DNA of 64,000 nt, from the NCBI GenBank assembly GCA_015067545.1, contig SVMG01000002.1, positions 62,001-126,000 of the forward strand, in the 5' to 3' direction. Within the stretch, counting starts at the first letter, position 1; each line of letters starts with the position of its first letter. The position numbers and the translations under genes are program-made. Below the pieces are notes generated by a model that was not told the DNA's origin, ran no database searches, and was given only the letters and a program-made list of their open reading frames with translations. Positions 10,559-36,598 of this stretch are shown piece after piece. Source of the DNA: Oscillospiraceae bacterium (GTDB taxonomy: Bacteria; Bacillota; Clostridia; Oscillospirales; Oscillospiraceae).

Positions 10559-12121
10559 ATGAAAAAACCCATCGTTCTGGTAATTATGGACGGCGTGGGC
10601 AAGGGCGACGGCGGCAGCGGTGACGCTGTGGCAGTTGCCAAGACTCCCACACTGGACAATTTGCTCGCTACCTGCCCTCACACCTATATCAAGGCTCACG
10701 GCACCGCTGTCGGTCTGCCCTCTGACGAGGATATGGGCAACTCCGAGGTGGGCCACAATGCCCTTGGCTGCGGCCAGGTCTATTCTCAGGGTGCAAAGCT
10801 GGTTGGCGAGTCCATCGAAAGCGGCAGCCTGTATCAGTCCGCCACCTGGCAGGATCTGATTGCCAACGCTAAGGAAGGCAAGGCCCTGCACTTCATGGGC
10901 CTGCTGTCCGACGGCAATGTGCACTCCAACATTTCTCACCTGATCGCCCTGCTGAAGCAGGCAAAGGCTGCGGGTGTGAAGAAGGCTTACTGCCACATCC
11001 TGCTGGATGGCCGTGACGTTCCCGCCACTTCCGCATTGGAATACGTGGGCCAGCTGGAAGACGTGCTTTCCGAGCTGAACACCGAAGGCTGTGACTACGC
11101 CATCGCCTCCGGCGGCGGCCGTATGCAGGTGACCATGGACCGTTACGAAGCTAACTGGGCTATGGTTGAGCTGGGCTGGAAGACCCACGTTCAGGGTCAG
11201 GGCAGAATGTTTGCATCTGCCAAAGAGGCTATTGAAACCTATCGTGCAGAGACCGGTGTCATCGACCAGGACCTGCCTGCCTTCGTTATCGCCCGCAACG
11301 GCGAGCCTGTTGCCAAAATCGCAAACGGCGACAGCGTAATTCTGTTCAACTTCCGTGGCGACCGGGCGCAGGAGATCTCTCTTGCCTTCGACCGCAAGGA
11401 TTTTGATAAATTCGACCGTGGTGACTATACCGGCGTGAAGTTTGCCGGCATGCTCCAGTACGACGGCGACCTGAACATTCCCGAGCATTATCTGGTTCAG
11501 CCCCCCGTCATCAAGAACACCCTGACGGAAGTGCTGTGCGACGCAGGTCTTACTGAGTACGCAGTATCCGAGACCCAGAAATACGGCCATGTGACCTACT
11601 TCTGGAACGGCAACCGCTCCGGCAAGGTCTGCGAGGAGCTGGAAACCTACGAGGAGATCCCCTCCGATGTGATCCCCTTCGAGCAGGCACCTGCCATGAA
11701 GTCCAAGGAGATCACCGAAAAGATGGTGCAGGCCATGGCTTCCGGCAAGTACCGCTTCATCCGCTGCAACTACCCCAACGGCGACATGGTGGGTCACACC
11801 GGCGTTATGGATGCTGTGGTGTACGCCATGGAATGCGTGGACAGTGGCCTGAAGGCCATTTTGGATGCCGCTGACAAGTACGGCTACACCGTCCTCATCA
11901 CTGCCGACCACGGCAACGCAGACCAGATGACCGAAACCAAGAAGGGCAAGACTGCTGTGCGTACCGCCCACTCTTTGAACCCTGTTCCCTTTATCATTTA
12001 CGATAAGGACAATGACTGGGCCATCAAAGACGGCGCTTACGGCCTTGCCAATGTAGCTCCCACCATCGTTAAGATGATGGGTCTGACCGCTCCTTCCTGC
12101 TGGGAAGAAAGCATGATTTGA
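10559..12121 (+). CDS. gpmI: 2,3-bisphosphoglycerate-independent phosphoglycerate mutase
   Basis: MKKPIVLVIMDGVGKG, MGNSEVGHNALGCG, RDVPATSALEYV, ITADHGNADQM. Confidence 0.95.
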   Translation: MKKPIVLVIMDGVGKGDGGSGDAVAVAKTPTLDNLLATCPHTYIKAHGTAVGLPSDEDMGNSEVGHNALGCGQVYSQGAKLVGESIESGSLYQSATWQDLIANAKEGKALHFMGLLSDGNVHSNISHLIALLKQAKAAGVKKAYCHILLDGRDVPATSALEYVGQLEDVLSELNTEGCDYAIASGGGRMQVTMDRYEANWAMVELGWKTHVQGQGRMFASAKEAIETYRAETGVIDQDLPAFVIARNGEPVAKIANGDSVILFNFRGDRAQEISLAFDRKDFDKFDRGDYTGVKFAGMLQYDGDLNIPEHYLVQPPVIKNTLTEVLCDAGLTEYAVSETQKYGHVTYFWNGNRSGKVCEELETYEEIPSDVIPFEQAPAMKSKEITEKMVQAMASGKYRFIRCNYPNGDMVGHTGVMDAVVYAMECVDSGLKAILDAADKYGYTVLITADHGNADQMTETKKGKTAVRTAHSLNPVPFIIYDKDNDWAIKDGAYGLANVAPTIVKMMGLTAPSCWEESMI

Positions 12122-12152
12122 TCCAACCACTATCAACAAGGAGGTACGATCT

Positions 12153-12506
12153 ATGATCCGCCAAACCAACGAATACGGCTCCGTCAATGTCAGCGCCAAC
12201 GTCTATTCCGACATCGCCGGTACTGCCGCCTCCAACTGCTTCGGCGTCAAGGGCATGGCCGCACGCTCCGTTTCCGACGGCGTGTACCACCTGCTGCGCA
12301 AGGAATCCATGTCCAAGGGTGTCCGCGTGGAATTCCATGAGGATGACACCATTTCCATTGATCTGCACATTATGGTGGACAACGGCGTGAACCTGAACGC
12401 CGTGGGCGCTTCGATCATTTCCGAAGTGCGCTATGTGGTCGCCAAGTGCACCGGCACCGAAGTACGGGCCGTAAATGTATACGTCGATTCTATGATGATC
12501 GGCTGA
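12153..12506 (+). CDS. Asp23/Gls24 family envelope stress protein
   Basis: 117-aa Asp23-like protein (ISIDLHIMVDNGVNLNAVGASIISEVRYVV) directly upstream of the YloV/FakA gene, the usual linkage. Confidence 0.85.
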   Translation: MIRQTNEYGSVNVSANVYSDIAGTAASNCFGVKGMAARSVSDGVYHLLRKESMSKGVRVEFHEDDTISIDLHIMVDNGVNLNAVGASIISEVRYVVAKCTGTEVRAVNVYVDSMMIG

Positions 12507-12524
12507 TAATCGGAGGTTAACAAC

Positions 12525-14153
12525 TTGAGACAGACCATCCATGGGGCCGAGTTCAGACGACTGATTATCAATGCGGCCGCTTCTATCGAGATCAACAAGC
12601 AAGCGCTGAATGATCTGAATGTTTTCCCTGTTCCCGACGGCGATACGGGAACCAATATGTCCATGACCATCAATGCCGCAGCCAACGACCTGCGCAAGAC
12701 GGAAGATCCCACCTTGGAGCAGGCCGCCGCTACCGCTGCAGCTTCCATGCTGCGGGGCGCAAGAGGCAACTCCGGCGTTATCTTGTCCCTGCTGTTTCGG
12801 GGCATCTCCAAGCGGCTGAAGGGCTGCACCGCCTGTGACGGCGTGCTGTGGGCCAAGGCTCTGCAGGAGGGCGTGGATGCTGCCTACAAGGCAGTTATGA
12901 AGCCCGCTGAGGGCACGATCCTCACCGTTGCCCGTCTGGCTGCCGCCAAGGCACATCAGGCATCCGAGGAGAATAACTACTTTGAGTATGTCCACGAGGC
13001 TGCCATTGAGGAAGCCAAAGTGGCGCTTGCCAATACCATCAACCAGAACCCGGTGCTGAAGAAGGCCGGCGTTGTGGATGCAGGCGGCAAGGGCTGGGTG
13101 GTGGCTATGGAGGCCATGCTGCTGGCTCTGCGGGGCGAGGACATCATCGTGCCCGAGAACCTGAGCAGCGGTGAGGCCAAGGCACAGGCAGATTTCTCCG
13201 ACTTTGACGACGAGGAGATCACCTTCACCTACTGCACCGAGTTCATCATCTCCCGGGAGAACGACAACGATCCGGAAAAGCTGAGAGATTTCCTGTCCAG
13301 CTTGGGCGACAGCCTGGTGCTGGTGGATGACGAAGAGATCATCAAGGTCCATGTCCACACCAACGACCCCGGCAAGGCGCTCCATGAAGCCATTGAGTAT
13401 GGCTCTTTCGTTACAGTCAAGATCGAGAACATGCGCCTGCAGCACACCGAAAAGGTGATGAGCGAGCAGGAGCTGGCTCCCAAGATCGCAGAGCCGGAGA
13501 AGCCCTTTGGCGTGGTCTCCGTGTGCGTGGGTGACGGCATTGGCGACGTGTTCCAGAACCTGGGCGTGGACGGCCTCATTTCCGGCGGCCAGACCATGAA
13601 TCCCAGCACCCAGGACATTCTGGAAGTGGTGAACCAGGTTCCCGCGGAGACTGTCTTCGTGCTGCCCAACAACAAGAACATCATCATGGCCGCTCAGCAG
13701 GTGGACGCGCTGACCCCCAAGAATGTGGTGGTCATTGAGAGCAAGACCATCCCCCAGGGCATCACCGCCATGCTCAGCTTCAACCCCGAGGGTACAACGG
13801 AGGAGAACACCGAAGCTATGACCGAGGCGCTGGGCTCTGTGGAGACCATGCAGATCACCTACGCCGCCCGGGATTCCGATTTCGACGGCCATATCATCCA
13901 CGAGGGTGACTACCTGGCCATTTGGAACGGCCTGTTCGGCACAAGTCGTGATATCAAGGTTCTGCTGAAGTCCCTGGCCGAGAAGGTGCGGGATGAGGGT
14001 AAGGATTACATCACCATCTACTATGGTGCGGATATCACCGAGAAGCAGGCACAAAAAGCCGCTGATCTGTTCAGCGACATCTGCCCCGATGCGGATGTGA
14101 ACCTCTTAAACGGTGGACAGCCTGTCTACTATTACCTGATCTCTGCTGAATAA
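12525..14153 (+). CDS. fakA: DAK2-domain fatty acid kinase-like protein (YloV/FakA family), TTG start
   Basis: NVFPVPDGDTGTNMSMTI, GARGNSGVILSLLFRG, VDAGGKGWVV (DAK2) plus C-terminal DegV-like part. Confidence 0.85.
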   Translation: MRQTIHGAEFRRLIINAAASIEINKQALNDLNVFPVPDGDTGTNMSMTINAAANDLRKTEDPTLEQAAATAAASMLRGARGNSGVILSLLFRGISKRLKGCTACDGVLWAKALQEGVDAAYKAVMKPAEGTILTVARLAAAKAHQASEENNYFEYVHEAAIEEAKVALANTINQNPVLKKAGVVDAGGKGWVVAMEAMLLALRGEDIIVPENLSSGEAKAQADFSDFDDEEITFTYCTEFIISRENDNDPEKLRDFLSSLGDSLVLVDDEEIIKVHVHTNDPGKALHEAIEYGSFVTVKIENMRLQHTEKVMSEQELAPKIAEPEKPFGVVSVCVGDGIGDVFQNLGVDGLISGGQTMNPSTQDILEVVNQVPAETVFVLPNNKNIIMAAQQVDALTPKNVVVIESKTIPQGITAMLSFNPEGTTEENTEAMTEALGSVETMQITYAARDSDFDGHIIHEGDYLAIWNGLFGTSRDIKVLLKSLAEKVRDEGKDYITIYYGADITEKQAQKAADLFSDICPDADVNLLNGGQPVYYYLISAE

Positions 14154-35085: not shown

Positions 35086-35118
35086 AATGAGGGAAGCTTT
35101 CGCTTCCCTCATTTTTTA
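35086..35118. terminator. Bidirectional intrinsic terminator
   Basis: aaaaaatgagggaagctttcgcttccctcatttttt. Confidence 0.85.
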
Positions 35119-35634
35119 GAAATTGACCTTTTTAATAACCCTCGTCAGGGGATGGAACAGCAGCATCACCGTCACAGCGGTACAGATCATTTGGGGAATC
35201 ATCGCCGTCAGCGACTGGTAAAAATAGGCCCTCGTGGCGTTCTCGTTAAAGCCATAAATAAGCGGTGTAATCACATCGTCCAACAATGTAAACATAGCGG
35301 TAAACACCACGGCGGATGCAACAACCATGACCGTTTTCAGCAGCGCATTTTTCCCAGTAAAACGCGCGCCCAGCCAGCCAAAGAAAAGCGCAAACAGGTT
35401 GTAGTACACCAGATACAGCACGATCACATTGATCTGAAAACCAAACACAAAGCACCGCAGCAGCGAAAAAGTGGTGGCAGTGGCGATACCGTGGCGGATG
35501 CCATAGCAATCGCAAAAGCACAGCAGCATCACCGTTATGATCTCAATGCCGGTCACACTGCTCAGCGCCAGCTGTCCGGCAATGAGCAGTGCCACGCACA
35601 TGGCCACGCGGACGACAAATTTTGTCTTGTTCAT
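35116..35634 (-). CDS. ECF-transporter S component-like membrane protein (candidate cobalamin/corrinoid substrate-binding subunit)
   Basis: 172 aa, about 5-6 TMs; start overlaps the stop of the DUF4430 gene (TAATG) downstream of a cobalamin riboswitch. Confidence 0.65.
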   Translation of the reverse strand: MNKTKFVVRVAMCVALLIAGQLALSSVTGIEIITVMLLCFCDCYGIRHGIATATTFSLLRCFVFGFQINVIVLYLVYYNLFALFFGWLGARFTGKNALLKTVMVVASAVVFTAMFTLLDDVITPLIYGFNENATRAYFYQSLTAMIPQMICTAVTVMLLFHPLTRVIKKVNF

Positions 35635-36056
35635 TAGCTAAAAGACTTAAATACCCAAATATACAGCTGATCCGGCTTGACCTTCAGCACTTCCGCACCG
35701 GAAATGGCAGAGCCGTACTCTTTCCCCTCGTACTCCACTGTACCCCAGGACGCATTGGCATTGTCGGCGTCGCTGGTATAGAGCATCCAGCAGCTGCTGT
35801 AATCGGTAGGATTGTCAATGCCGTTGATGGATGTGATCATACCGTCGCTGATGGTAAATTCCAGGTCACCCTTCTCCTTCAGCTTGGTCATATAGTCCAT
35901 CAGGGTCATGTCGGCTGTTTCCTGGCCGGTGGTCTTGACCACGATGTAGGTGTCAGAATCCTTGATCACCAGTTTTTCCTCCTGGCAGGCGGACAATCCG
36001 GCAAGGATCACCAACACCAGCAGAACGGACAGCGCTTTTTTCATTTTGTTTTTCAT
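35634..36056 (-). CDS. DUF4430 (transcobalamin-C-terminal-like) lipoprotein
   Basis: Lipobox VILAGLSAC; TLMDYMTKLKEKGDLEFTISDGMITSINGI...SSCWMLYTSDADNANASWGTVEYEGKEYG is DUF4430-like; RBS aggagg. Confidence 0.75.
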   Translation of the reverse strand: MKNKMKKALSVLLVLVILAGLSACQEEKLVIKDSDTYIVVKTTGQETADMTLMDYMTKLKEKGDLEFTISDGMITSINGIDNPTDYSSCWMLYTSDADNANASWGTVEYEGKEYGSAISGAEVLKVKPDQLYIWVFKSFS

Positions 36057-36074
36057 AATTTTTTCCTCCTGAAA

Positions 36075-36118
36075 AATGATACGGCTGCGGCGTCGATTTG
36101 ACGCCGCAGCCGTTTTTC
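36075..36118 (-). terminator. Strong hairpin between riboswitch and DUF4430 ORF (candidate expression platform)
   Basis: ACGGCTGCGGCGTCAAATCGACGCCGCAGCCGT on the minus strand followed by a short T-rich tail. Confidence 0.6.
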
Positions 36119-36159
36119 TGCGACAAACGCACATCCTCGTAATCACGCGAAGATGGGGA

Positions 36160-36385
36160 GATCCATTCCGTAGGTCTTCTGACTCGTGGCTCTTGGATTC
36201 TGGGAGGATCCGCAGCATCCTCTGCCTTCCCGGAAATATTCCAGTGACTGGCTTTCGCCAAAAGAAGATGCCATACCACATACAGCGGCGGTACCGTTCG
36301 GGATTTTCACCCGATTATCTTGTTCAGCAGCCAAGGTTCATCGCCCCGGCCGCCACGGAACTTCTATCAAATTGTCGTAATTATC
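36160..36385 (-). ncRNA. Cobalamin riboswitch
   Basis: Minus strand: ...GATAATCGGGTGAAAATCCCGAACGGTACCGCCGCTGTAT...GGCGAAAGCCAGTCACTGG...CCGGGAAGGC...AAGAGCCACGAGTCAGAAGACCTACGGAATGG; matches conserved blocks of the class (GGUGAAAAUCCC..., CCGCcgCUGUA, GAGcCA-GA-GACCU). Confidence 0.88.
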
Positions 36386-36436
36386 ATAGCACTTTGCATT
36401 CTAAATGTCAAGCCCGTGTCGAATAGCTCCGCGTAC

Positions 36437-36598
36437 AAGGCTTCCCCTTGAGGGGAAGCTGGCAAAAATCTTTGATTTTTGACTGATGAGGTGTAGGCTG
36501 CAAAGCAGCCGTATAAATCTTAATTGTCGCTTTGCGACACCACCACATCCGTCACGCCTATCGGCGTGCCACCTTCTCCTCAAGGAGAAGGCTTTTCA
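36437..36598. repeat. Intergenic multi-hairpin repeat R7
   Basis: ggcttccccttgaggggaagctg...tgatgaggtg...gtgccaccttctcctcaaggagaaggc; same end architecture as R1. Confidence 0.6.

What the first reader, a model, noticed from the sequence alone, without database searches (positions are those of the whole stretch)
35116..36385. Cobalamin riboswitch controlling a transcobalamin-like lipoprotein and an ECF S-component
Seen: a cobalamin-riboswitch-like leader, a long GC hairpin, then a DUF4430 lipoprotein and a small membrane protein coupled by a TAATG overlap. Established: DUF4430 resembles the C-terminal domain of eukaryotic transcobalamin/intrinsic factor, and ECF S-components use a shared energising module encoded elsewhere. 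Inference: a compact corrinoid capture (surface lipoprotein) and uptake (S-component) module distinct from BtuFCD.
Basis: partly seen in the sequence, partly recalled or inferred. Interest (0 to 1): 0.6.

Follow-up and report, generated by a model that had tools for sequence, protein, structure and literature searches.

The report
Vitamin B12 capture and uptake pair
A vitamin-B12-sensing RNA switch sits in front of two genes, for a surface lipoprotein resembling part of our own B12-carrier proteins and for the substrate-binding part of a B12 importer; the arrangement is a divergent, so far unannotated branch of a B12 uptake system already known from lactic acid bacteria.

Summary
On the minus strand lie a promoter, an RF00174 cobalamin riboswitch (36375-36152, 75 bits), a conserved terminator hairpin, a 140-aa lipoprotein and a 172-aa membrane protein that overlaps it by one base (TAATG). 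The lipoprotein is a divergent DUF4430 protein: its Pfam score is below the cut-off, but intrinsic factor and transcobalamin are the top structural and profile hits, and its profile matches known DUF4430 partners (hhalign 99%). The membrane protein has no Pfam or NCBIfam match but folds as an ECF S-component. Its clade (17 members) always has the DUF4430 gene directly upstream, usually behind a cobalamin or AdoCbl-II riboswitch. Its nearest relatives match CbrT, the proven cobalamin/cobinamide S-component, as their only PDB hit (E 8e-22). The Lactobacillus nrdJ-cbrS-cbrT-pduO order matches nrdJ-DUF4430-S-component-pduO in annotated plasmids, so this kind of module is known. The window clade is a separate branch: CbrT's invariant His and Trp are gone, and an invariant Cys sits at TM3/L3. 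The genome appears unable to make the corrin ring, and has B12-dependent enzymes, a shared ECF module and a second cobalamin-linked DUF4430-ECF locus. Verdict: new variant of a known kind. Substrate and lipoprotein role are inferred.

The parts
36383..36411 (-). sigma-70 type promoter TTGACA-N17-TATGAT with TG before the -10
   Evidence: 11 of 12 consensus matches, ending 8 nt upstream of the aptamer; a consensus match only, but its position fits
36152..36375 (-). cobalamin riboswitch aptamer (RF00174)
   Evidence: 75.3 bits, E 9.9e-17, full model 1-189; conserved in L020, L021, L022
36081..36113 (-). GC-rich hairpin with U tract: intrinsic terminator, presumed expression platform of the riboswitch
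   Evidence: 14 bp, 11 G-C; 13-bp consensus stem kept in 4 sequences, 3 pairs changed on both sides; U-rich tail conserved
36066..36071 (-). Shine-Dalgarno AGGAGG, 9 nt before the ATG
   Evidence: sequence
35634..36056 (-). lipoprotein (140 aa, lipobox Cys24) with a divergent DUF4430 / transcobalamin beta-type domain; CbrS-like
   Evidence: PF14478 sub-threshold; 14 homologues; hhalign to DUF4430 CbrS-like proteins 99.2%, E 7.8e-20
35116..35634 (-). ECF transporter S-component (172 aa, 6 helices), sister clade of clostridial CbrT; start overlaps the lipoprotein stop (TAATG)

Best explanation
A B12-repressed, two-gene corrinoid uptake module. When adenosylcobalamin is scarce the riboswitch lets transcription pass the terminator hairpin (shown: aptamer, conserved terminator, promoter; inferred: ligand and direction). 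The lipoprotein, anchored in the cell envelope by Cys24, uses a DUF4430 domain like the beta-domain of transcobalamin and intrinsic factor to hold a corrinoid near the membrane (fold supported; binding inferred). It passes the corrinoid to the co-translated S-component, a divergent CbrT relative, which docks with the shared EcfA-EcfA'-EcfT module encoded elsewhere in the genome and carries the corrinoid across (family supported; transport inferred). The cell would use it to feed B12-dependent enzymes such as the glutamate-mutase type pair, because it appears to lack the genes for the corrin ring and keeps the late cobinamide-salvage steps.
For: Riboswitch at high score. The same gene pair stands behind two different cobalamin riboswitch classes in relatives: RF00174 in L020-22, L027-29 and L031; RF01689 in L023, L024 and L038; weaker ones in L025 and L030. 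DUF4430-type gene directly upstream in all 13 loci found from the S-component alone and in all 17 class-level loci scoring at least 38 bits. AF2 models: S-component pLDDT 89, top 16 Foldseek hits all ECF S-components; lipoprotein pLDDT 85, top hit intrinsic factor. Only profile hit in the PDB: transcobalamin-2 (weak). Near relatives have CbrT 6fnp as only PDB hit, E 8e-22; profile-profile with them 99.4%, E 2.7e-21. CbrT imports cobalamin and cobinamide (PMC5997447). Genome context: group II ECF module by truA, CobT/U/S, glutamate-mutase-type B12 subunit, adenosyltransferase, no CobQ/CbiA (the sole hit is HisH).
Against: No direct test of binding or transport. DUF4430 in the window protein is below Pfam's cut-off, and the Foldseek match to intrinsic factor is not significant on its own (E 0.1, TM 0.46). 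The window clade lost the His, Trp and Asn residues invariant in CbrT-type proteins, and its own profile does not reach 6fnp directly. L026, L032, L039 and L041 show no cobalamin riboswitch. ECF-CbrT works in E. coli (PMC5997447); that paper names the lipoprotein gene only as part of the cluster, so the lipoprotein may be dispensable.
Confidence: 0.85

Rival explanations
1. The S-component imports another molecule of the B12 pathway (alpha-ribazole, dimethylbenzimidazole or cobalt), and the lipoprotein serves that substrate.
For: Cobalamin riboswitches also control such genes (own knowledge). The genome keeps CobT/CobU/CobS. The CbrT-invariant pocket residues are absent. On plasmid pMF1298-5 an S-component next to cobS and a hypothetical gene (CblT/CblS in PMC6722938) serves this role.
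Against: The clade sits with CbrT, while the pMF1298-5 CblT candidate is a very distant outgroup. The partner is a transcobalamin-type domain, as at CbrT loci, whereas no DUF4430 gene adjoins that CblT candidate. No CbiM/N-like features were seen.
Confidence: 0.1
2. The S-component imports corrinoids through the dedicated ECF module of contig C15 rather than the shared module, so the window pair is a spare substrate arm of that locus.
For: C15 encodes its own two EcfT-type proteins and a fused double ATPase, a DUF4430 protein and CobT/U/S, beside a cobalamin riboswitch.
Against: That module has its own S-component of PF07155 type. Solitary S-components, as CbrT in L. delbrueckii, use the shared group II module (PMC5997447), and such a module is present on C1.
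Confidence: 0.15
3. The lipoprotein does not bind corrinoids but acts as an assembly or docking factor for the S-component.
For: It is small, the match to intrinsic factor is only fold-level, and published ECF-CbrT transport is reported without a role for the lipoprotein (PMC5997447).
Against: The domain belongs to the cobalamin-carrier beta-domain family. A different-type cobalamin locus in the same genome also carries a DUF4430 protein.
Confidence: 0.2

Closest known systems
CbrS-CbrT of Lactobacillus (nrdJ-cbrS-cbrT-pduO; ECF-CbrT, PDB 6fnp)
   Same: DUF4430 lipoprotein gene directly upstream of an ECF S-component; linked to B12 (riboswitch here, B12-dependent nrdJ and adenosyltransferase there); same S-component superfamily branch. 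Identity of cbrS with the DUF4430 gene is inferred from matching gene order.
   Different: Window S-component is a separate clade without CbrT's invariant Asn/Trp/Asp/His residues and with its own RCFVFGF and D-x3-TP motifs; lipoprotein has a longer beta-hairpin; no adjacent B12 enzyme genes.
Human intrinsic factor / transcobalamin beta-domain (DUF4430)
   Same: Top Foldseek hit and only profile hit in the PDB.
   Different: No alpha/alpha-barrel domain, membrane-anchored, low sequence identity (about 10%).
BtuM (Thiobacillus denitrificans)
   Same: S-component-like cobalamin transporter with a functionally essential Cys in loop L3 (PMC6072759); window clade has an invariant Cys61 at the TM3/L3 border.
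   Different: No sequence match found; BtuM is a solitary protein; equivalence of the two cysteines is not shown.
CbrV-CbrU-CbrT ECF locus of plasmid pMF1298-5
   Same: Resembles the second cobalamin locus of this genome (contig C15): EcfT, double ATPase, S-component, DUF4430 protein.
   Different: Not the window locus: the S-component belongs to another family and the ECF module is encoded alongside.

Membership tests
Cobalamin riboswitch (RF00174) | covariance-model score above the gathering cut-off | tested here: met
   75.3 against 31.5 bits
Cobalamin riboswitch (RF00174) | binds adenosylcobalamin and switches expression | not testable with these tools
   only a conserved terminator downstream was seen
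DUF4430 (PF14478) | Pfam gathering score reached by the window protein | tested here: not met
   19.9 against 23.8 bits; 9 of 14 family members match at E<=0.01, one relative above cut-off
DUF4430 (PF14478) | homology to accepted DUF4430 proteins by profile and fold | tested here: met
   hhalign 99.2%, E 7.8e-20 against CbrS-like proteins; intrinsic factor top fold hit
ECF transporter S-component | six-helix S-component fold | tested here: met
   AF2 pLDDT 89; top 16 Foldseek hits S-components, TM up to 0.71
CbrT | direct profile match to 6fnp | tested here: not met
   no hit at E<=10 from the window-clade profile; reached only through intermediates
CbrT | residues invariant in CbrT-type proteins (His in the FDxxH motif; Trp in the TWW region) | tested here: not met
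   His is Gln in 15 of 17 window-clade members but His in 24 of 24 CbrT-type rows; other invariant residues
CbrT | phylogenetic grouping with CbrT apart from other S-components | tested here: met
   sister to clostridial CbrT, 99/96; the whole group with Lactobacillales CbrT 91/63, a moderate value
CbrT | adjacent DUF4430 lipoprotein gene and B12-linked control | tested here: met
CbrT | transports cobalamin and cobinamide | not testable with these tools
   needs transport assay
BtuM-type Cys-ligated binder | Cys in loop L3 as axial cobalt ligand | tested here: inconclusive

The most novel reading that the evidence does not exclude
The window clade is a functionally distinct corrinoid S-component family: the histidine of CbrT is replaced and an invariant cysteine at the TM3/L3 border (Cys61) binds the cobalt of a base-off corrinoid, as Cys80 does in BtuM, with the DUF4430 lipoprotein forming the lid over the other corrin face, so that two membrane-bound halves recreate the clamp that transcobalamin makes within one protein.
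Probability: 0.15. Interest if true: 0.65.

Novelty: new variant of a known kind. Interest (0 to 1): 0.42.

Why it matters
Most gut bacteria must take up corrinoids, and standard annotation leaves this pair nameless: no Pfam or NCBIfam match for the S-component, and DUF4430 below threshold. Naming the clade would add a B12 uptake route for gut Oscillospiraceae and other Clostridia. It also gives a compact system in which the role of the bacterial transcobalamin-like lipoprotein, unstudied even at the known CbrT loci as far as I found, can be tested directly.

Tried and rejected
Direct phmmer of either protein against the PDB gave only chance hits. The window-clade profile has no PDB hit even at E 10. 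NCBIfam gave nothing useful. P0002 has no relative in plasmid records. Absence of BtuCD was considered as an argument, but contig C15 ends inside a btuF-like gene and FecCD genes occur in most genomes of the genus, so it is inconclusive. A de novo corrin pathway was considered; the only GATase_3 hit is HisH, so this 97.5% complete genome most likely has none. A riboflavin- or thiamin-type S-component was rejected: the hits of the window-clade profile at 38 bits or more are CbrT-type with a DUF4430 gene, while the PF07155-type protein of C15 scores only 23 bits. An antiterminator pairing in the leader was looked for by eye and in one fold without a clear result. Rodionov 2009 was not held.

Full report
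What is there. The feature lies on the minus strand of a 1.80-Mb genome of Oscillospiraceae type (97.5% complete; window = contig C7 62001-126000; the nearest named relatives are Oscillospiraceae MAGs). From upstream to downstream: a promoter TTGACA-17-TATGAT (36411-36383), an RF00174 cobalamin aptamer (36375-36152, 75.3 bits, E 9.9e-17), a GC-rich hairpin with a U tract (36113-36081), a Shine-Dalgarno AGGAGG, a lipoprotein gene (36056-35634) and a membrane-protein gene (35634-35116) that share one base in TAATG. The flanking genes (HU, an S4-domain protein, a DnaJ-like protein) are not B12 genes, so this is a self-contained two-gene unit. In three relatives (L020-L022) the aptamer and hairpin are conserved; three stem pairs of the hairpin show changes on both sides, and it is followed by a U-rich tail in all four, so it is a maintained terminator and not a chance palindrome.

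The lipoprotein. Pfam places residues 51-93 in DUF4430 at 19.9 bits, below the 23.8 cut-off, so a single-sequence reading would be weak. Three further tests agree. Nine of 14 family members match DUF4430 at E<=0.01. The family profile has one PDB hit below E 1, transcobalamin-2, at E 0.18. The AF2 model (pLDDT 85) has human intrinsic factor as its best Foldseek match among 350,542 chains (probability 0.96, E 0.1), with a second intrinsic-factor structure at rank 4. Each is weak alone, but they are different methods and point to the same family. Profile-profile comparison with DUF4430 proteins of CbrT loci gives 99.2%, E 7.8e-20. The window family has a longer segment between the CWMLY strand and the last strand (two extra strands in the model).

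The membrane protein. It has no Pfam or NCBIfam match. The AF2 model (pLDDT 89) has six helices, and its first 16 Foldseek hits are all ECF S-components (PanT, ThiT, RibU, folate, biotin), TM-score up to 0.71. A scan of the collection of 84,980 species genomes with two peptide patterns found 13 relatives; a profile search of 391 genomes of the class found matches in 28 besides its own. All 13, and all 17 class-level loci scoring at least 38 bits, have a DUF4430-type gene directly upstream. Neither search used the neighbours, so this linkage is a fair test.

Riboswitch linkage. RF00174 precedes the pair in L020, L021, L022, L027, L028, L029 and L031; the distinct AdoCbl-II class RF01689 does so in L023, L024 and L038; L030 and L025 carry sub-threshold ones (36.1 and 26.6 bits). 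CbrT-type relatives L042-L049, L053, L058 and L064 also carry RF00174. Two riboswitch classes placed before the same gene pair is strong evidence for a role in corrinoid supply. L026, L032, L039 and L041 showed none, and L040 is cut too close to tell.

Relation to CbrT. A profile of the class-level relatives (A5, which also includes the window protein as one of 20 rows) has exactly one PDB hit at E<=10: 6fnp chain A, the CbrT of L. delbrueckii, E 8.3e-22. The window-clade profile matches the relatives without the window protein (A6) at 99.4%, E 2.7e-21. In the tree the 17 window-clade proteins form one group (100/99), sister to clostridial CbrT (99/96), with Lactobacillales CbrT outside (91/63 for the whole); the stem is long (2.05), so the exact place is less certain than the neighbourhood. 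CbrT is an experimentally shown cobalamin and cobinamide S-component (PMC5997447). That paper gives the order nrdJ-cbrS-cbrT-pduO; L. intestinalis shows nrdJ - DUF4430 - ECF S component - adenosyltransferase, and L. plantarum and E. raffinosus also pair DUF4430 with the S-component. I infer that cbrS is the DUF4430 gene. A proteomics paper lists an 'Additional lipoprotein component of putative cobalamin ECF transporter' in L. rhamnosus and a DUF4430 protein next to rtpR (PMC9963975). The kind of module is therefore known.

What differs. CbrT-type proteins have an invariant His (19 of 19 clostridial, 5 of 5 Lactobacillales rows); the window clade has Gln there in 15 of 17. The window clade has its own invariant R60-C61 (17 of 17), D119 and T123-P124. 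Cys61 is near the end of helix 3 (46-64), next to loop L3, by the model. In BtuM the cobalt ligand Cys80 is in L3 (PMC6072759). This is a lead, not a shown equivalence: I could not superpose the structures.

Genome context. A shared EcfA-EcfA'-EcfT module lies by truA on contig C1. Contig C15 holds a second cobalamin locus: an RF00174 riboswitch (104.6 bits) and, divergently, a large DUF4430 protein (58.9 bits), EcfT, a fused double ATPase, a PF07155-type S-component, a second EcfT, CobT, CobU and CobS, with a btuF-like gene running off the contig end. A glutamate-mutase-type B12-binding subunit with its MutL-like partner (named from the sequences) and a cobalamin adenosyltransferase indicate demand. 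The only GATase_3 protein is HisH, so corrin-ring synthesis is most likely absent. Of nine same-genus genomes checked at the syntenic site, one (L083) carries the pair: presence is patchy.

Mechanism and confidence. Shown by sequence: riboswitch, terminator, lipobox, fold families, conserved pairing. Inferred: repression by adenosylcobalamin, corrinoid capture by the lipoprotein, hand-over to the S-component, use of the shared ECF module. I put 0.85 on corrinoid uptake overall. ECF-CbrT rescues an E. coli uptake mutant at 1 nM (PMC5997447), and that paper mentions the lipoprotein gene only within the cluster, so I see the lipoprotein as an accessory capture factor rather than an essential subunit.

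Verdict. The system is a divergent, unannotated variant of a known kind; its interest lies in the changed S-component signature and in the untested role of the transcobalamin-like lipoprotein.

Noticed in passing
L018 (contig C15 of the same genome) 11133-13086(+): A second, stronger cobalamin riboswitch precedes a 514-aa lipoprotein with collagen-type Gly-x-Asp repeats and a Listeria-Bacteroides repeat; its C-terminal 278 aa have no PDB match and no relative in 150 other genomes of the family. Possibly a new cobalamin-controlled surface protein.
   Followed up: partly
L018 1855-10764(-): DUF4430 - EcfT - double ATPase - PF07155 S-component - EcfT - TIM barrel - CobT - CobU - CobS operon: a dedicated corrinoid ECF locus, similar in its ECF part to CbrV-CbrU-CbrT of plasmid pMF1298-5.
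   Followed up: partly
window 36436-36597: Intergenic stretch with matching ends (CCTTGAGGGGAAGC ... CCTTCTCCTCAAGGAGAAGG) that looks like a small mobile or palindromic repeat element; the end motif occurs only here within the window.
   Followed up: partly
L039 2-397(+) and 899-1498(+): Two lipoproteins of the window family lie upstream of one S-component, suggesting duplication of the capture protein.
   Followed up: no
L027, L028, L029, L031, L032, L039, L040, L041: S-components of the window clade with an extra segment of roughly 50-80 residues between helices 4 and 5; function unknown.
   Followed up: no
L082 (contig C7 261919-262377): The only cobalamin adenosyltransferase found lies next to an aldehyde-dehydrogenase-like gene, possibly an ethanolamine or propanediol utilisation locus.
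   Followed up: no
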